A stretch of 40,069 nucleotides of DNA from Verrucomicrobiota bacterium (GTDB lineage Bacteria; Verrucomicrobiota; Verrucomicrobiia; Limisphaerales; JACDHS01), in the NCBI GenBank assembly GCA_013820875.1, contig JACDHS010000036.1, positions 1 through 40,069 on the forward strand. Reading direction: 5' to 3'. Positions 5,655-16,772 of this stretch are shown piece after piece (the first letter of the stretch is position 1; each line of letters opens with the position of its first letter). The position numbers were made by a program, and so were the translations under genes. A model generated the notes under the pieces. The model saw only the letters and a program-made list of their open reading frames with translations, had not been told where the DNA came from and ran no database searches.

Positions 5655-8600
5655 ATGAAACACAGACTCGCAGTTCTATTAGCCATCTGGTTTCCCCTCA
5701 TCACCGTTTTCGCGCAGCAACAACAACCGCTGCGAGTCTTTATCCGGGCCGGCGAGAAAACGCATGGGCCGGGTCAGCACGATCATCCGCGCTTTCTCGC
5801 GGAATGGCAGGAGCTGCTGAATGAACGCGGCGCCAAAGCGAGTGGAAAACTTGAGTTCCCAAGCGCAACGGAATTGGAAAACACCGATGTGCTGGTGATG
5901 TATGCGGCGGAAGCCGGAACGATCGCCCCGGAGCAACGCGCCGACCTTGAGAAATTCTTGAAACGCGGCGGCGGCATTGTGGCCATTCACGACGCGGTCT
6001 GCGGCAAAGATCCTGCATGGTTTAAAAACATCATTGGTGGCGCGTGGGAACATGGAAAATCGAAATGGTTCGAAGGGGACATCGCTTTTTATTACAGCGA
6101 CCGGGAACATCCGATTACCAAAGGGGCTTCGAACTTCGATTTCGATGACGAGCTTTACCACGACCTGCATATTTCTCCCGAAGCGCGCGTTCTGGCCGCG
6201 ACCTACGCGCCGGACAAACGCAACACACGCGATGGAAAACTGTTTCCATCCGTTTACGACATCGTTCCGCAAATGTGGGTCTATGAAAAAACTTTGGAAG
6301 GCGGGAAACCCTACCGCGCTTTTGTTTCAATCCCGGGCCACAATCACAAGACCTTCAACCTGCCGCATTTCCGCGCCATTTTGCTGCGCGGAATCGCCTG
6401 GGCGGGACACCGGGAAGCGGATTCTCTTTGCAGCAAAGAGGAACTGGCCAGCTTGCGCTATCCCGAGGGTGGCCCGACTGCTCCGGAAAAAGCGGCCGCG
6501 CAAATCAAAGTTCATCCTGAGTTCGACCTGAACCTGGTGGCCTCTGAGCCGCTCATGGAGAAACCAATCTCACATGATTGGGATGCGCAAGGCCGGCTTT
6601 GGGTTGCTGAAACTCCCGAATACCCGGCTGGACGTAAAGAAGGCGATCCCAATCGCACGCCGCAGGATCGCATTTCCATTCTTGAAGATTCGAACGGCGA
6701 CGGTGTGATGGATAAGAAATCAGTTTTTGCGGATGCATTGGAACTGGTCACCAGTTTTGTTTTTTTCAAAGACGGGGTGATCGTTGCGCAAGCGCCGGAG
6801 GTGCTTTGGTTGCGCGATACCAATGGCGATGGCAAAGCCGATAAGCGGGAAGTGCTTTACACCGGGTTCGGCACCCGTGACACCCATGCAGTTCTCAGCA
6901 ACATGCGCTGGGGGTTGGACGGCTGGGTCTATGCGGCGCTCGGTTATAGCGGCGGAGCGATCAAATCCGGTGACGGGAAAACAGATTTTGGCGGCGTCGG
7001 TTCAGGGGTGATTCGTTTTCGGCCTGACGGCGCTGGTGTCGAACAGGTTGCTTCGAGGAATGGGAATACCTGGGGATTGGATTTCGGGTGGGATGGCGAA
7101 CTGTTTTTCACCCAGGCGAACGGCGCCCATCTGCTTCACGTCGTGATGCCGGAACGGTTACTTTCGCGAGGGAGAATTCCAGGGACGACCAGTTCCAAAG
7201 TGATTGAAGATCATAAGGCTGTTTTCCCGATCCGCGACTACCCGAAACAAGCTTACGTGCAGATAGATCATGTGGGAGGGTTTACATCGGCGTCGGGTGG
7301 CACCATTTACAACGGTGGCGCATGGCCGGCGGAATGGGATTACAATCATTTCGTTTCTGAACCCACGGTGAACCTGGTGCATCGCGACATCCTGAAGGCG
7401 CAGGGGACTTCATTCGTTGCCAGCAAAGATCAGGAAGCTGAATTCATCGCCAGCACGGATCTTTGGTTCCGCCCCATTCATCATCGCGTTGGGCCGGACG
7501 GCGCGCTTTACATTTTGGATTTTTACAACCAGGCCGTTGTTCACAACGACACCCGTGGTCCGGCACATGGAGCGAACAATGCGGCGGTTCGGCCGGATCG
7601 CGATCATCACTTCGGACGCATCTGGCGTGTGCAGCATAAACAAGCAAAGAAACTGGAGATTCCTAATCTCGCCAAAGCGGCCCCTGAACAATTGGTGGAT
7701 GCGTTAAACCATCCCAATCAGTGGGTGCGGATGACGGCGCATCGTCTTCTGGTGGAAAACGGTTCGAAGGATTTATTTCCAGCGCTCGAAGCATTGGCCC
7801 GCGCCACCACTGCAACTCCTGCTGCCCGCGTTCACGCCATGTGGGTTCTTGAAAATTCCAGCGCGCCCATTCGCGATCTCGTCGGCAGCGTTTTGGACGA
7901 CGACAACGTGGCGGTGCAGAAGAATGCCTTGCAGATTGTTGGTGGTCTCAAAAATCTCAATCCTGACGCCGATTTCCACTTTTCTGTTATTGGCAAATTC
8001 ATGTTTGGCGATTCACGGGCGACCCTTTATGCGCTTGTTGCAGAAGCGGCTTTTCGCACAGGCAAACCGGCGCAGGATGCGATGATGTTTGCCTATCCGC
8101 AACTGGATGACCCGTGGCTGAAGTCTGCCGCGATTGGCACTGCTGTTGGCGCTGGCACGGAGTATCTGGAAGCGCTCTTCCTTGTGCAGAATCCAGAAGG
8201 GATGGAGAGCCTGGCAGCCGCCCTGGGCAGTGCCGTTGCTCAGAAGACAGACCTTGGGTTGGTGGCAAGTACCATTGTCCGCCTGGCGCTGGGCCCAGTC
8301 CATTCCGAGCCGTTGAAGAAAATTGTGTTGGAAAAGCTCACCACTGAAATGGATCCGAACACTATGCTTCCCTGGTCTGAACCCACGGAAATGTTGCTGA
8401 ACGGCTTGCTCGGCGCTCACAGTCTTGAAGTGCGCATGGGGGTCATCCCCCTGGTGGTGCGCTGGGATAAAGAAGGCAAACTGGCCCCTGAAGTTCGCCA
8501 CGTGATCATGGAAATTGTGGAGACGGTGAATAATGCGGAAGCGCCAGAGTCGGAACGGATTGCCGCCATTAACGGGCTTTTGGGTGTTCGGCATCTGCTT

Positions 8601-10025
8601 CCGGATGCAGTGAACGTCATCGGCGGCATCTTGAGCACGCCGGTTTCGCCAGCCATGCAGAAACATATCATTGAGGCGCTCGGCAGGGCATCGGAACCTG
8701 GAGTCGCTGTGGCCTTGATTTCTTCTTATGAAAGCCTTTCACCGGATTTGCAGGAACAGGCGCTCAGCCAGTTGCTCAAGCGTTCCGAATGGTCGCTCAT
8801 CTTTCTGGATGTCATTGCCTCGAAGCAAATTGACCTGGCGACATTAGGGCCAATTGCAGTGAACCGTTTGCGCACCCACAGTGACAGATCGGTTTCAAGG
8901 CGCGCTAATCAGGTGATCGAGCAAATTCTTGGACCGCAGATAAAGGAGAAGAACGAGCTAATTGCCAGGTTCGCACCGAGTATCGAGAAGCTCGGTGGTA
9001 ATATCGCCAATGGTAAAAAGGTATTCGACCAAAACTGCGCCATTTGTCACCGCTTCAACGGCGAAGGAAAAGAACTCGGCCCGGATTTGACCGGGATGGG
9101 CGCACATGGTCCGCATGAATTGCTCGTTCATACCCTGGATCCCAACCGCGTGGTGGAGCCCAACTTCCTTTCGGTGAGTGTTGAGACCACGGATGGCGAG
9201 AGCCACGACGGCATTGTTGGTCGTGAGACCAAGACCCACATTCTGCTGCGGAACACCGCTGGAGACATCGAGCTCAGCAAGAAGAACGTGAAACGTCAGA
9301 AGTCCACCGGGCGTTCTTTGATGCCGGAAGGATTTGAGGCGCTCGGCGAAGAAACGTTGCGGGACTTGTTGTCGTATATTTGCGCCGCCGAAACCAAGTA
9401 TCGGCTGATTGATCTGAAACACGTTTTCACCGCGAACTCGTTGAAGGGCATTTACATCAGCCAGGATTCTCTCAATGAGACGTTGAAGTTCAAAAATTTC
9501 GGGATGGTAAAGGTGGGTGATATTCCATTTGAAATCGGCAACCCGCTGACCACTGCTTCCGCGAAGAATGTCATTGTCCTGAAAGGTGGCAGTGGGTTTG
9601 CAAAAACATTGCCGCAGAAGGTGGAGATTGCGGATGTGAATCTGAGCGCTTCCAGGCTGCATTTCCTGGGGGGTGTGGCCGGATGGGGTTGGCCATGTTG
9701 CGGCGACAAGAAGAATGAGAATCTGCCGGCAGCCAAAGTCACCGTGCATTACGAGGGTGGCGAGACGGAAGAATTCATCCTGAAGAACGGACAGGAAATC
9801 GCCGATTACAATGGCAAGTTCGACGTGCCCGGTTCCCACGCAGCGGAAGGGTTGGTTGATGGCGGTCAGGTGCGCTGGTTCTCAAAGGACTTGAAAAAAC
9901 AGGGTAAGATCAAAAAAATCAGCCTGGAGAGTTTCGATAACCAGCTCGCGCCTACGTTCATTTCGATTACTGCCGAGACCATTAAAGGCGGCGGGCATCT
10001 GCAATCGAAAGTGGAAAAGAATTAA
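5655..10025 (+). CDS. ThuA / dehydrogenase propeller / HEAT / PVC-type cytochrome c fusion protein
   Basis: A 1456-residue exported protein. Residues 1-20 are a signal peptide ending near VFA-Q. A ThuA-like domain (about 27-260; ThuA relates to sugar utilisation) precedes a membrane-bound-dehydrogenase-type beta-propeller (about 295-650) with two NGDG loops resembling calcium sites (DSNGDGVMDK and DTNGDGKADK). Helical HEAT-like repeats follow (about 660-1100). Then comes a haem c domain with CAICH at 1128-1132 and a likely distal Met1223 (LMPEG). A C-terminal beta-rich domain (about 1260-1450) may bind carbohydrate. This propeller plus CxxCH pairing is characteristic of Planctomycetes and Verrucomicrobia. 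The likely role is periplasmic sugar oxidation with electron transfer to the haem; the substrate is unknown. A ThuA lipoprotein gene follows about 80 bases downstream. Confidence 0.88.
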   Translation: MKHRLAVLLAIWFPLITVFAQQQQPLRVFIRAGEKTHGPGQHDHPRFLAEWQELLNERGAKASGKLEFPSATELENTDVLVMYAAEAGTIAPEQRADLEKFLKRGGGIVAIHDAVCGKDPAWFKNIIGGAWEHGKSKWFEGDIAFYYSDREHPITKGASNFDFDDELYHDLHISPEARVLAATYAPDKRNTRDGKLFPSVYDIVPQMWVYEKTLEGGKPYRAFVSIPGHNHKTFNLPHFRAILLRGIAWAGHREADSLCSKEELASLRYPEGGPTAPEKAAAQIKVHPEFDLNLVASEPLMEKPISHDWDAQGRLWVAETPEYPAGRKEGDPNRTPQDRISILEDSNGDGVMDKKSVFADALELVTSFVFFKDGVIVAQAPEVLWLRDTNGDGKADKREVLYTGFGTRDTHAVLSNMRWGLDGWVYAALGYSGGAIKSGDGKTDFGGVGSGVIRFRPDGAGVEQVASRNGNTWGLDFGWDGELFFTQANGAHLLHVVMPERLLSRGRIPGTTSSKVIEDHKAVFPIRDYPKQAYVQIDHVGGFTSASGGTIYNGGAWPAEWDYNHFVSEPTVNLVHRDILKAQGTSFVASKDQEAEFIASTDLWFRPIHHRVGPDGALYILDFYNQAVVHNDTRGPAHGANNAAVRPDRDHHFGRIWRVQHKQAKKLEIPNLAKAAPEQLVDALNHPNQWVRMTAHRLLVENGSKDLFPALEALARATTATPAARVHAMWVLENSSAPIRDLVGSVLDDDNVAVQKNALQIVGGLKNLNPDADFHFSVIGKFMFGDSRATLYALVAEAAFRTGKPAQDAMMFAYPQLDDPWLKSAAIGTAVGAGTEYLEALFLVQNPEGMESLAAALGSAVAQKTDLGLVASTIVRLALGPVHSEPLKKIVLEKLTTEMDPNTMLPWSEPTEMLLNGLLGAHSLEVRMGVIPLVVRWDKEGKLAPEVRHVIMEIVETVNNAEAPESERIAAINGLLGVRHLLPDAVNVIGGILSTPVSPAMQKHIIEALGRASEPGVAVALISSYESLSPDLQEQALSQLLKRSEWSLIFLDVIASKQIDLATLGPIAVNRLRTHSDRSVSRRANQVIEQILGPQIKEKNELIARFAPSIEKLGGNIANGKKVFDQNCAICHRFNGEGKELGPDLTGMGAHGPHELLVHTLDPNRVVEPNFLSVSVETTDGESHDGIVGRETKTHILLRNTAGDIELSKKNVKRQKSTGRSLMPEGFEALGEETLRDLLSYICAAETKYRLIDLKHVFTANSLKGIYISQDSLNETLKFKNFGMVKVGDIPFEIGNPLTTASAKNVIVLKGGSGFAKTLPQKVEIADVNLSASRLHFLGGVAGWGWPCCGDKKNENLPAAKVTVHYEGGETEEFILKNGQEIADYNGKFDVPGSHAAEGLVDGGQVRWFSKDLKKQGKIKKISLESFDNQLAPTFISITAETIKGGGHLQSKVEKN

Positions 10026-10105
10026 GTCTTAGTGTAGAAAGTTCGAGAATTTTCCCAGACAACAGTGTCATGCCCCTTGGGGCAGAGCTGAGGAGTTTTA
10101 AAAAT

Positions 10106-11044
10106 ATGAGAATGAAATCGAATTACCTGATCGCAGCCTTCGCCGTGCTGGCTGGCGCTACTTTGGTTACCGGCTGCAAACCAGAAGCCCAATCTGAAGA
10201 AAAGAAACCGGTCACGACAGAGACAAATCTGGAAGCGCAAGCTGAGGTTGATGTTGAGGCAAGAGTTGAAGTCAAAAAATCGTATAAAAAGGTGGAAACG
10301 ATTGAAGACCTGGGCGATTTCTTTCCCACGGCGCTGGGATCGGTTCGGGTTTCCATGCTGGGCGGTGGCACTCACCACGATTTTGATCGATGGTTCAATA
10401 TTTCCGATTCGGTGACGATTTCGTACGCCACTACCGAGCCCGTCAACTACACCACGAACCTGACCTACTTCCTGGAAGGCATTCCAGAGCATGATGTGCT
10501 TTATCTTTGCAACAATTCGCCCATGACGAATGCAGAGGTTAACAAGGCGATCTTTGATTTCGCGGATAACGGCGGCGGTTTTCTCCTCATTCATCCGGCC
10601 CTTTGGTATAACTGGAAGAATTGGCCCGAATGGAATCGCGTGATGGTTGGTGGCGGCTCGCGCAAACATGATAAGTATGGGCCGGTGGAAGTGGTGATTG
10701 AAAATCGCGATCACCCGATCATGTATAATATCCCGAAAAGCTTCGTGGTGGAGGACGAGTTGTATCACTTCGAACCCGATCCAGAAGGTTCGCCCATCGA
10801 AGTGCTCGCCAGTGGAATCAATCCTGCCACCGGGGAAAAGCAACCTGTCGTTTGGATCACGAAACATCCTAAAGCCAGGATTATCTGCACATCGCTGGGA
10901 CACGACGGCAGCACTCATGAGAATCTCGCCTTCCGTGTGATGTTACAAAACTGCATGGCATGGGTGGGGAAACTCGATAAAGTGTTGGCGGATGAAAAGG
11001 CGCAAGTGGTGAAGGCGTCAATGGAAGCGGCTAAGGCTCCGTAA
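10106..11044 (+). CDS. ThuA-like domain lipoprotein
   Basis: A 312-residue lipoprotein. The N-terminus MRMKSNYLIAAFAVLAGATL leads to the lipobox VTGC, then a Glu/Lys-rich linker. The ThuA-like domain (about residues 75-300) shows GGGTHHDFDRW, NGGGFLLIHPALW and VVEDELYHFEP, and resembles the N-terminal domain of the preceding gene (IPGHNH there, SLGHDG here). The ATG at 10106 is chosen because AGGAG (10091-10095) lies 10 bases upstream; the upstream in-frame start at 10070 would spoil the signal peptide. It probably shares a transcript with the cytochrome fusion gene and may handle the same sugar-derived substrate. ThuA biochemistry is only partly known, so function is inferred. Confidence 0.85.
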   Translation: MRMKSNYLIAAFAVLAGATLVTGCKPEAQSEEKKPVTTETNLEAQAEVDVEARVEVKKSYKKVETIEDLGDFFPTALGSVRVSMLGGGTHHDFDRWFNISDSVTISYATTEPVNYTTNLTYFLEGIPEHDVLYLCNNSPMTNAEVNKAIFDFADNGGGFLLIHPALWYNWKNWPEWNRVMVGGGSRKHDKYGPVEVVIENRDHPIMYNIPKSFVVEDELYHFEPDPEGSPIEVLASGINPATGEKQPVVWITKHPKARIICTSLGHDGSTHENLAFRVMLQNCMAWVGKLDKVLADEKAQVVKASMEAAKAP

Positions 11045-12340: not shown

Positions 12341-12727
12341 TCAGCCGATCCGAAAAGAAATTTTTTTGATCAACTCGCTTCCAAAACTGTGCTGCAGCCG
12401 TTGCAGAATTTCCCTTCGTCGGTAACGCACAATTTCATCCAGCCAGGCGCTGCTGTCCACGTTCACAAATAAAGTTCCATTGTGCAGGCCGGTGGGTTGA
12501 GCGTGGGCGGCAATATTGGGATCCATCAAATTGCCCCAAACCTTTACAATCTCGGTTTCTGCCTGACGACGTTCCAGGCGCAAATCCTTGAGTATCTGCG
12601 GCATCAATTCACTCACTGGCCGGGCTGATTTCGCCATGGCCTTTTCGAGCGGAGCCACGTCTATGCCACGCCACATCGCGAGAACCTGGCGGCGCGGATC
12701 GGGTCTGTCAGATTTCGAATACCACAT
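12341..12727 (-). CDS. DUF721 (DciA-like) protein
   Basis: A 128-residue protein of the DUF721 family, which includes DciA, the loader partner of replicative helicase in bacteria lacking DnaC. Typical features are VWGNLMDPNIAAHAQP (about residues 63-78), NGTLFVNVDSSAWLDEI and the C-terminal IKKISFRIG. The ATG at 12727 lies four bases after the stop of the GH42 gene; a longer frame would extend into that gene and is rejected. Its position behind a glycosidase gene is unusual, and coupling to it may be only positional. A replication role follows from family knowledge and is not shown here. Confidence 0.8.
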   Translation of the reverse strand: MWYSKSDRPDPRRQVLAMWRGIDVAPLEKAMAKSARPVSELMPQILKDLRLERRQAETEIVKVWGNLMDPNIAAHAQPTGLHNGTLFVNVDSSAWLDEIVRYRRREILQRLQHSFGSELIKKISFRIG

Positions 12728-12731
12728 GGGC

Positions 12732-14816
12732 TTAGGATTGCCCTTCAGGCTGTGGCTCGTGTTTGGGATGTTGGTCCAGCACCAGAACACCGTGCGCTGG
12801 CAGATCATAGGTGCCGGTGAAATCTTTGCCGCTCAAAAAGTCGTGCATTGGTTTGTAAAATTGAACTCGCACCGGTGAATTTTGATGATTCAGCAAAAAA
12901 TAAATCCGCGTGTCCGCGCTCTGTCGCATGCTGACTTCCACAGTATCGGGCACCTTCAAAAGCGGATGAAGACCAATCATCTTCTGGATCCACGCAATCA
13001 CGTCATAATAGAAGGACTGCTGGCTCATGGTGCCGATGTAAATGGCTTTGCCCAAGCCGAATTCATTACAGGTCATCGCCGCTTTCCCCGCGTAAAATTC
13101 TTTCGCGTAAGTGGCGAGCACCTGGCAGCCGTTGGGCTCGATGATATCGCACCAGACGCGGGCTGCATGTAAATGGGAGGCATGAAATGCACCGCCTCTG
13201 AACGTCAGATGATTCTCTTCACCGGGCGGAACAGGATCGAACTCCAGCACTTCCATTCCGAATAGATCGGTGAGGCCATGGGGATAACCGCTGTCGGGTG
13301 CGATGTGGTGTTCATCAAGCAAACCGGTGTTGCATGTGGCCACCAGCGTGCCGCCATTTTGCACATATAATTTCAGGTTATCCGCCTCGCCCCCGGCCAA
13401 TAGCTGGAGGGATGGCGCGATCACCAGTTTGTATTTCGAAAGATCTTCTGTGGGCCGGACAAAATCCACGGCGATGTTGCGATCGTGCAGAGCAGCATGA
13501 AAGAGCTGAATGTGTTCACGCTGGCTGAAGAACTTGGTGGGCTGGCGTGGGTAGGCCAATGCCCATTCATTGTCATGACTCATCAGGATCGCCGCATCCG
13601 CCACAACCTTTGTTCCTTTCAAGGCGGCGCCGAGTTTCTTCACGTCCTCGCCGATCTGTTGAATCTCCTTATAGATCCGGTTGTCGGCGCGCCCGGTGTG
13701 AGGCAGCACGCCTCCGTAGAACTGATCGGTTCCGAACCGCGGCTGTCGCCAATAAAAATATAAGATGCCATCGGCCCCGCGCGAAATCGCCTGGTAGGTA
13801 AAGAGGCGCAAGACGCTGGGACGCACGACAGAATTCACATCCTGCCAACTGACGTGTCCCGCCTTTTGTTCCATGACCCAGAATCCTTCGTCGCCATCGG
13901 GAGTTTTGATGCCGGACTTTTTCAACGAACGCATGATGTCGAGTTCGCAGGCGTTTTCCGCGGAACGCGATTTGATATTCGCATTGCTGATCGCGGAAAC
14001 GAAATCGAGCGGCTCACTGACATCGAACAAATCGAGGTGCGATGGCGCAAAGGTGCGTAAATTGGTGGTTAACGGGATAGTCGGCGTCAAGTCGCGCAAG
14101 ACTTCCGCCTGCATCCGAATGAATGCGACTGCGGTGTCGCTGCTGAAACGCATCCAATCCAGGACCAGTGCCGGGTTATGTAGCGTTGGTGCTTTCAACG
14201 GCATTGGAACCTGGGAAAAATCAGTGACGATCTGTCCGAGAAAGCGTGTGCCCAACATTTGGTTGAGCCGCTCAATGGTTTCGTATTTTACCTGGAGCCA
14301 CGCCTGCCAGTCGCGACGGACTTCTTCGTTGAAGGCGTGTTCCCGCATTCGGCCACCCATGTTGTTATCAATCTGCCAGGCGATGAGTTGCGGATGCTTT
14401 CCCAGCGCCCCGGCCATTTCCCGGACGATCTTGCGCGAGTATTCCCAATAGATATCGCTGTTCAAGCATGCCGCATGACGAGTTCCTTCGTGCAGGGTTA
14501 AGCCTTCATCCGTCTTCGGCAGGATGTTAGGATATTTTTTGGTGAGCCAGATGGGAGGAGCAGAAGTCGGCGTGCAGAGAACCACTTCGATTCCGGCAGT
14601 GCCCATGATATCCATCACGCGGCCCAGCCAGGAGAAGTCGAATTCGCCTTCCGCAGGTTCGCAGATGCCCCAGACCGTTTCCCCGATGCGCACCACGTTT
14701 GCGCCCATCTCGACCATCAACCGGGCATCTTCCTTCCACCGCGCCTCGGGTGCGTCGTGAGAGCCAGAGTATGGAAAGACCCAATGTTCCGGATGATAAT
14801 CAACGCCGAAATACAT
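12732..14816 (-). CDS. GH42 beta-galactosidase-like protein with altered acid/base residue
   Basis: A 694-residue glycoside hydrolase family 42 protein. The TIM-barrel domain (about 1-385) starts with FGVDYHPEHW and includes GANVVRIGE. The nucleophile region reads VMEQKAG, with Glu316 placed as in the A4 beta-galactosidase (E312). The acid/base motif normally reads DNE; here it is WQIDNNMGG, so residue 152 is Asn (codon 14361-14363). A trimerisation/Rossmann-like domain (about 390-600) and a C-terminal beta domain follow. No signal peptide is seen, so it would be cytoplasmic. GAGGT (complement of 14821-14825) is a plausible ribosome-binding site. With the acid/base lost, catalysis may be weak, changed, or supplied by another residue. 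Confidence 0.9.
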   Translation of the reverse strand: MYFGVDYHPEHWVFPYSGSHDAPEARWKEDARLMVEMGANVVRIGETVWGICEPAEGEFDFSWLGRVMDIMGTAGIEVVLCTPTSAPPIWLTKKYPNILPKTDEGLTLHEGTRHAACLNSDIYWEYSRKIVREMAGALGKHPQLIAWQIDNNMGGRMREHAFNEEVRRDWQAWLQVKYETIERLNQMLGTRFLGQIVTDFSQVPMPLKAPTLHNPALVLDWMRFSSDTAVAFIRMQAEVLRDLTPTIPLTTNLRTFAPSHLDLFDVSEPLDFVSAISNANIKSRSAENACELDIMRSLKKSGIKTPDGDEGFWVMEQKAGHVSWQDVNSVVRPSVLRLFTYQAISRGADGILYFYWRQPRFGTDQFYGGVLPHTGRADNRIYKEIQQIGEDVKKLGAALKGTKVVADAAILMSHDNEWALAYPRQPTKFFSQREHIQLFHAALHDRNIAVDFVRPTEDLSKYKLVIAPSLQLLAGGEADNLKLYVQNGGTLVATCNTGLLDEHHIAPDSGYPHGLTDLFGMEVLEFDPVPPGEENHLTFRGGAFHASHLHAARVWCDIIEPNGCQVLATYAKEFYAGKAAMTCNEFGLGKAIYIGTMSQQSFYYDVIAWIQKMIGLHPLLKVPDTVEVSMRQSADTRIYFLLNHQNSPVRVQFYKPMHDFLSGKDFTGTYDLPAHGVLVLDQHPKHEPQPEGQS

Positions 14817-16402: not shown

Positions 16403-16772
16403 TGCTGGACGAGGGCGTGGGAAACGTTTCTCTCGTGTTTTTCCGATGGAAAATGTGGTGGAAAATATTTCCCACGTGTCTGCACGATGGAAAAAGGCGT
16501 GAGAAATATTCCCACGACCTCGCACGAATGGAAAAAGTGGTGAGAAATATTTTCCACGTGTTTTGCAGAGTGAAAATTCCGGGAAATATATTTCTGACGT
16601 GTCCGCCCGAAGTGCAGAGGCGTGAGAAATATTTCCCACGACCTCGCACGATGGAAAATGTGGTGGAAAATATTTCCACGTGTTTTACAGAGTGAAAATT
16701 CCGAGAAAAATATTTCCCACGAGTCTGCACGAAGGGAATGAAAGCGAGAAATGTCGTTTCCGCTTCTGTAAG
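16403..16772. repeat. Degenerate 41-bp tandem repeat array, about nine units
   Basis: Aligning the core GAAATATTTCCCACG places unit centres near 16425, 16466, 16507, 16548, 16589, 16630, 16671, 16711 and 16752, a 41-base period with one 40-base step. Each unit combines a purine-rich part such as GATGGAAAATGTGG, a near-palindromic A/T core (GTGGGAAATATTTCCCAC type), and CGTGTCTGCAC or CGACCTCGCAC. Alternate units share more features with each other than with their neighbours, hinting at growth by duplication of two or more units. The units are contiguous with no unique spacers, so this is not a CRISPR. Confidence 0.85.

What the first reader, a model, noticed from the sequence alone, without database searches (positions are those of the whole stretch)
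14361..14363. GH42 protein with Asn in place of the catalytic acid/base Glu
The segment WQIDNNMGG corresponds to WQxDNExG of GH42, and the nucleophile Glu316 is present. Glu to Asn needs at least two base changes, so it is not a simple read error. Retaining glycosidases without the acid/base may act only on activated substrates, use another residue, or have become binding proteins.
Basis: partly seen in the sequence, partly recalled or inferred. Interest (0 to 1): 0.6.

Follow-up and report, generated by a model that had tools for sequence, protein, structure and literature searches.

The report
Beta-galactosidase relatives lacking catalytic acid
Nearly a whole order of soil and water bacteria (Limisphaerales, Verrucomicrobiota) carries one well-preserved relative of the sugar-cutting enzyme beta-galactosidase in which one of the two catalytic residues is always missing, so it probably binds or transfers a sugar instead of cutting it in the usual way.

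Summary
The window gene (12735-14816, minus strand, 694 aa) is a full-length GH42 protein with Asn152 where GH42 has its catalytic acid/base Glu; the nucleophile Glu316 is kept. In 104 distinct relatives from the same order this position is Gly 73, Ser 20, Asn 4, Ala 4, Lys 2, Pro 1, never Glu, Asp or Gln. In 110 other GH42 proteins of the phylum it is Glu in all 110. The lineage is one clade (SH-aLRT 100). It was found in 150 of 196 genomes of the order, usually one copy, and is under strong purifying selection (median dN/dS about 0.07).

Other changes come with it. The Tyr that H-bonds O1 and the residues around O1/O2 are lost or free to vary. The Met packed against the acid/base is now Arg254, and a Lys318 lies two residues after the nucleophile; both are nearly invariant. 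Residues contacting O3/O4/O6 are kept. Constraint has shifted from the catalytic face towards the trimerisation domain.

Most likely this is a GH42-derived pseudo-glycosidase that keeps a sugar pocket with a cationic leaving-group side. A phosphate- or transfer-type enzyme using Glu316 is not excluded. No activity was tested.

The parts
12735..14816 (-). GH42-like protein, 694 aa, no signal peptide visible (M1 starts at strand beta-1; M1 invariant in the 56-row alignment)
   Evidence: AlphaFold2 model pLDDT 82, pTM 0.86; best PDB match 3tts_A, TM 0.90/0.93
13632..14798 (-). Domain A, catalytic (beta/alpha)8 barrel (Pfam PF02449, residues 7-395)
   Evidence: E 2.8e-109; only match in the own genome that also carries GH42M
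12978..13601 (-). Domain B, GH42 trimerisation domain (PF08532, residues 406-613)
   Evidence: unusually conserved in this clade relative to the catalytic face
12774..12941 (-). Domain C, GH42 C-terminal domain (PF08533, residues 626-681)
   Evidence: 21.4 bits against a cut-off of 21
14361..14363 (-). Asn152 (AAC) at the acid/base position (Glu160 of BiBga42A)
   Evidence: never Glu in the clade, Glu 110/110 in other phylum GH42
13869..13871 (-). Glu316 (GAA), catalytic nucleophile position (Glu318 of BiBga42A)
   Evidence: Glu in 102 of 104 distinct clade members, Asp in 2
14055..14057 (-). Arg254, replaces the Met (M262 of BiBga42A) that packs on the acid/base in the +1 subsite
   Evidence: Arg in 102 of 104; Met or gap in most canonical GH42; role of M262 from PMC10688820
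13863..13865 (-). Lys318, two residues after the nucleophile, clade-specific
   Evidence: 111 of 112 loci; not among the common residues in canonical GH42
13983..13985 (-). Asn278, in place of the Tyr (Y287 of BiBga42A) that contacts O1 and is needed for turnover
   Evidence: Clade N/T/Y/D/A; canonical Tyr 108 of 110; Y287F lowers kcat 80- to 170-fold in BiBga42A
13989..13991 (-). Ile276, in place of the Asp (D285 of BiBga42A) that binds O2/O1; the clade mostly keeps Asp or Glu here
   Evidence: clade D50/E47/I3; canonical D98 of 110
13725..13727 (-). Asp364, in place of the O4-binding Glu (E366 of BiBga42A)
   Evidence: clade E99/D5; canonical E 110 of 110
14478..14480 (-). Arg113, retained O3/O4-binding Arg (R121 of BiBga42A)
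   Evidence: clade 103 of 104; canonical 110 of 110
14178..14180 (-). His213, aligned with F221 of BiBga42A, which reaches the +1 subsite of the neighbouring subunit in the trimer
   Evidence: His in 102 of 104; role of F221; geometry not tested
12341..12808 (-). Downstream co-directional DciA (DUF721) gene; the ORF overlaps the end of the GH42 gene, with a likely in-frame start at 12727
   Evidence: PF05258, 72 bits; adjacent and same strand in 68 of 106 loci with enough downstream sequence

Best explanation
The gene belongs to an old, vertically inherited, order-wide GH42 lineage that gave up the classical two-Glu retaining mechanism (shown by sequence). It is most likely a cytoplasmic pseudo-glycosidase (inferred). 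The homotrimeric GH42 fold and the half of subsite -1 that recognises O3/O4/O6 are kept. The half that handles C1/O1/O2 and the leaving group is remodelled into a pocket lined by Arg254 and Lys318, with Glu316 serving mainly to hold the ligand. The protein would bind a galacto-configured sugar, probably one with an anionic substituent on the C1 side, and act as a sensor, scaffold or partner through its highly conserved trimerisation domain, not as a turnover enzyme. Shown here: acid/base loss across the clade, monophyly, purifying selection, which residues are kept or lost, and the shift of constraint towards domain B. Inferred: absence of hydrolysis, ligand type and role.
For: Position 152 is never Glu/Asp/Gln in 112 same-order loci and is Glu in 110/110 other phylum GH42; 19 Gly and 1 Ala appear in 20 further fetched order matches, partly the same genomes. 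The clade is monophyletic, SH-aLRT 100. It is found in 150 of 196 order genomes, and is the only strong GH42 in 35 of 38 near-complete genomes that have one. dN/dS among close pairs has median about 0.07, so it is not a decaying pseudogene. Tyr278 and the O2-side residues are free to vary, although Y287F costs 80- to 170-fold kcat in BiBga42A. The nucleophile is Asp in L004/L197 (the window's own family) and in L224. The catalytic face changes at 0.84 times the rate of domain B in the clade, against 0.36-0.54 in five canonical GH42 subgroups. The fold is intact.
Against: Glu316 is Glu in 102/104 and O4-binding Glu364 in 99/104, more than a mere fold relic would need. The catalytic face is still more conserved than the rest of domain A. 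In BiBga42A, E160A alone lowers kcat on pNP-galactoside 170-fold without abolishing it, so residual or specialised activity is plausible. No ligand, partner or phenotype is known. The gene neighbour DciA reveals no sugar pathway.
Confidence: 0.5

Rival explanations
1. It is a retaining glycoside phosphorylase or transglycosidase. Glu316 still forms the glycosyl-enzyme, and removing the anionic acid/base (with Arg254/Lys318 added) lets phosphate or another anion enter as acceptor or leave as leaving group, as in GH3 enzymes that use His instead of Glu/Asp, or in GH84 Asp-to-Asn mutants.
For: Nucleophile nearly invariant; Arg254 (102/104) and Lys318 (111/112) are clade-specific. PMC8950772 states that a non-carboxylate acid/base lets phosphate into retaining enzymes and that one Asp-to-Asn change converts GH84 hydrolases to phosphorylases. 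The protein has no visible signal peptide, as expected for a phosphate user.
Against: No residue for protonating a sugar leaving group was shown. Loss of the O1-contacting Tyr and variable O2 contacts argue against efficient glycosylation. Lineages with nucleophile Asp exist (L004, L197, L224). No partner kinase, mutase or transporter is conserved beside it. Side-chain geometry was not available.
Confidence: 0.25
2. It is still a hydrolase, either for substrates with good leaving groups (myrosinase-like) or with a replacement acid/base such as His213 from the neighbouring subunit or a residue of the clade-specific loop 13-24.
For: Plant myrosinase replaces the acid/base Glu with Gln. His213 (102/104) aligns with F221, which reaches the +1 subsite in trans. 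E160A of BiBga42A keeps measurable pNP-Gal activity.
Against: His213 also occurs in 17 of 110 canonical GH42 that have Glu152. Tyr278 loss is expected to hurt any double displacement. No obvious activated natural substrate in a cytoplasm.
Confidence: 0.2
3. An ordinary beta-galactosidase, or a sequencing/assembly artefact at one codon.
For: High Pfam GH42 score.
Against: Order-wide in independent assemblies; codon AAC shared by L004, L196, L197, L198; E160A-type loss costs 170-fold even on pNP-Gal.
Confidence: 0.03

Closest known systems
GH42 beta-galactosidases (9ta3 LacZ; 3tts Bca-beta-Gal; BiBga42A 8ibr/8ibs/8ibt; T. thermophilus A4 1kwg)
   Same: Three-domain fold, Pfam domains, nucleophile Glu, O3/O4/O6 contacts (Arg113, Trp324, acidic 364, Phe354), about 29% identity to 3tts in the fold alignment, TM 0.90
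   Different: No acid/base Glu; Tyr287 equivalent lost; Met262 to Arg; Lys after the nucleophile; extra loop at 13-24
GH3 His-type phosphorylases (Nag3, BglP) and GH84 Asp-to-Asn phosphorylase mutants
   Same: Retaining beta-glycosidase scaffold with nucleophile but a non-carboxylate at the acid/base position (PMC8950772)
   Different: Different families; no His-Asp dyad identified here; phosphate use untested
Plant myrosinase (GH1)
   Same: Clan GH-A-type retaining enzyme with the acid/base Glu replaced by an amide residue, nucleophile kept (ascorbate role from the title of its reference Burmeister 2000)
   Different: There Gln is used; here mostly Gly/Ser; substrate and cofactor unknown; more of the -1 subsite is altered
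Ignavibacterium album beta-1,2-glucosyltransferase (7vkx) and GH164 beta-mannosidase (6t5o)
   Same: Next-closest folds (TM 0.77 and 0.70); IaSGT transfers instead of hydrolysing
   Different: IaSGT keeps both Glu residues (E176, E343); 13-16% identity

Membership tests
GH42 (sequence family) | Pfam PF02449 + PF08532 + PF08533 in order | tested here: met
   all above curated cut-offs (GH42C only just)
GH42 (sequence family) | GH42 three-domain fold | tested here: met
   TM 0.90/0.93 to 3tts_A; 33 top matches all GH42
GH42 retaining glycosidase | Catalytic nucleophile Glu at the end of beta-7 | tested here: met
   Glu316
GH42 retaining glycosidase | Catalytic acid/base Glu at the end of beta-4 (WxxxNE) | tested here: not met
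   Asn152 here; 0 of 112 clade loci have Glu; 110/110 canonical do
GH42 retaining glycosidase | Conserved Tyr contacting O1 (Y287 of BiBga42A) | tested here: not met
   Asn278; Tyr in 11 of 104 clade members, 108 of 110 canonical
GH42 retaining glycosidase | O3/O4/O6 galactose contacts (R121, E366, W326, H369) | tested here: inconclusive
   Arg113 and Trp324 kept; Glu to Asp364 and His to Tyr367 here
GH42 retaining glycosidase | Homotrimer and beta-galactosidase or arabinopyranosidase activity | not testable with these tools
   Domain B present; no assay
Retaining glycoside phosphorylase (GH3/GH84 type) | Phosphate-dependent turnover through a glycosyl-enzyme | not testable with these tools
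   Only suggestive residues (Arg254, Lys318)
Retaining glycoside phosphorylase (GH3 type) | His acid/base, as His/Asp dyad | tested here: inconclusive
   No His at the acid/base position; His213 conserved but position in trans unproven
Decaying pseudogene | Relaxed selection, frameshifts, patchy presence | tested here: not met
   Mostly intact ORFs, median dN/dS about 0.07, 150/196 genomes

The most novel reading that the evidence does not exclude
An entire bacterial order uses a GH42 protein as a new kind of retaining enzyme: Glu316 forms the glycosyl-enzyme, and a cationic Arg254/Lys318 pocket in place of the carboxylate acid/base makes it phosphate- or anion-dependent (a GH42 phosphorylase or transferase), a reaction that I know of no report of in GH42.
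Probability: 0.2. Interest if true: 0.8.

Novelty: new variant of a known kind. Interest (0 to 1): 0.55.

Why it matters
Automatic annotation will call well over a hundred of these proteins 'beta-galactosidase' and count them as lactose or galactan degradation genes in a widespread soil and freshwater order, which is probably wrong. The clade is also a clean natural experiment: one loss of the acid/base, followed by long purifying selection with the nucleophile kept. It can show either how a glycosidase becomes a conserved binding protein or how a retaining enzyme works without a carboxylate acid/base.

Tried and rejected
Read error or local frameshift: rejected, since independent assemblies share the codon and the clade-wide loss. 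Alignment slip hiding a Glu: rejected, since MAFFT, tblastn, phmmer and profile alignments agree and no neighbouring residue of the WQxDNx motif is Glu in the window; a second GH42 in genome G348 aligned the same way shows Glu. Decaying pseudogene: rejected. Horizontal or accessory gene: not supported (single copy, 57-72% identity, order-wide). Operon-based function: DciA is next door in 68/106 loci, but DciA is a replication factor and gives no metabolic clue; the Gfo/Idh/MocA oxidoreductase upstream in the window is adjacent in few loci, so a 3-keto-glycoside pathway was not pursued. NCBIfam had no model. Literature searches found no report of this clade; only open-licence papers were searched. 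Side-chain distances could not be measured because the model's coordinates are not exposed.

Full report
OBSERVATION. The ORF at 12735-14816 (minus strand) encodes 694 aa with the three GH42 Pfam domains. Codon 14363..14361 is AAC, Asn152, in WQIDNNMGG. HMM alignments to solved GH42 enzymes place Asn152 opposite the acid/base Glu and Glu316 opposite the nucleophile; 5dfa, the nucleophile-Ala mutant, aligns at Glu316. The AlphaFold2 model (pLDDT 82, pTM 0.86) matches GH42 structures with TM up to 0.90/0.93.

IT IS A CLADE FEATURE. 80 loci from a genome-wide scan (titles are Verrucomicrobiota: Limisphaerales, Pedosphaera, subdivision 3, plus some unassigned 'bacterium'), 12 loci of best matches and 20 of the most diverged order members were read. 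Together with the window, 104 distinct sequences have at position 152 Gly 73, Ser 20, Asn 4, Ala 4, Lys 2, Pro 1. As a control, 110 GH42 proteins from other orders and classes of the phylum all have Glu. A second, distant GH42 in one order genome (G348) also has Glu. In a tree of 136 rows the no-Glu group is one side of one branch, SH-aLRT 100, length 0.76. The branching is from a quick tree, midpoint-rooted. 150 of 196 order genomes have the gene. In 47 near-complete genomes, 38 have a strong GH42 match and 35 of these have exactly one; the own genome has no other GH42/GH42M protein.

SELECTION. Close pairs give dN/dS of mostly 0.02-0.10, median 0.07 over 78 pairs. Codons at 152 are GGC 51, AGC 15, AAC 5 and others, so Glu>Gly>Ser>Asn by single steps is the simplest history (inference).

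WHAT ELSE CHANGED. Residue roles are from the BiBga42A structure and mutants (PMC10688820), where E160A costs 170-fold and E318A 2,900-fold in kcat on pNP-Gal. The residue map to BiBga42A was made by motif and offset, not by a direct pairwise alignment. Against that map, the contacts to O3/O4/O6 are mostly kept: R121>Arg113 (103/104), W326>Trp324 (102/104), F356>Phe354 (89/104), E366>Glu (99/104; Asp in the window). The O1/O2 and leaving-group side is not kept: E160 lost (0/104), Y287 lost (11/104 Tyr), D285 is Asp 50/Glu 47/other, N159 is Asn 88/104. M262, which holds E160 in place, is Arg254 in 102/104, and Lys318 follows the nucleophile in 111/112 loci. The nucleophile is Glu in 102/104. 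The window protein departs further than most (Ile276, Asp364, Leu193 for Trp, Arg156 for His); its sister L004/L197 also has nucleophile Asp.

WHERE THE CONSTRAINT LIES. In five canonical subgroups the catalytic face changes 0.36-0.54 times as fast as domain B; in this clade the ratio is 0.84, at a mean identity (0.68) equal to that of canonical subgroup V (ratio 0.39). The face is still slower than the rest of domain A (0.70). So the pocket is still used, but no longer with the stringency of a working GH42 active site. The face was defined from strand ends of the model, not from distances.

READING. The classical two-Glu mechanism is gone across the clade (sequence fact plus established GH42 chemistry). 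A ligand pocket, the trimer domain and strong selection remain. I commit to a sugar-binding pseudo-glycosidase at about 0.5. A phosphate- or anion-using retaining enzyme (precedents) gets 0.25, a residual or alternative hydrolase 0.2. Geometry, ligand and activity were not tested.

CONTEXT. DciA follows on the same strand in 68 of 106 loci. It fits vertical inheritance of the region and gives no functional clue.

Noticed in passing
window 16406-16758: Array of diverged (61-71% alike) repeats with 41-base spacing, upstream of the Gfo/Idh/MocA gene; mechanical ORFs of 248-268 aa run through it.
   Followed up: partly
window 5655-10025: 1456-aa protein with ThuA, DUF7133, HEAT and cytochrome c domains, followed at 10070-11044 by a second ThuA protein with a lipoprotein-like start.
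   Followed up: no
L218, L219 (genomes G368, G325): A second, more diverged copy of the clade with Lys152, Asp151, Asp278 and Asp364 beside the normal Gly152 copy: a paralogue with an even more altered pocket.
   Followed up: partly
L004 / L197, L224: Clade members whose nucleophile Glu316 is Asp; L004/L197 is the window's closest family member.
   Followed up: partly
G000:C1:3974-4180 (L002): Weak PF02449 hit in the own genome lies in a 440-aa GH1-like protein, not a second GH42 (GH1 by eye, not by a profile search).
   Followed up: partly
L043, L074, L075 and similar loci: In a subclade the gene follows a DUF748/AsmA-like protein and a response regulator, often with a GT21-type glycosyltransferase downstream and no DciA detected.
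   Followed up: partly
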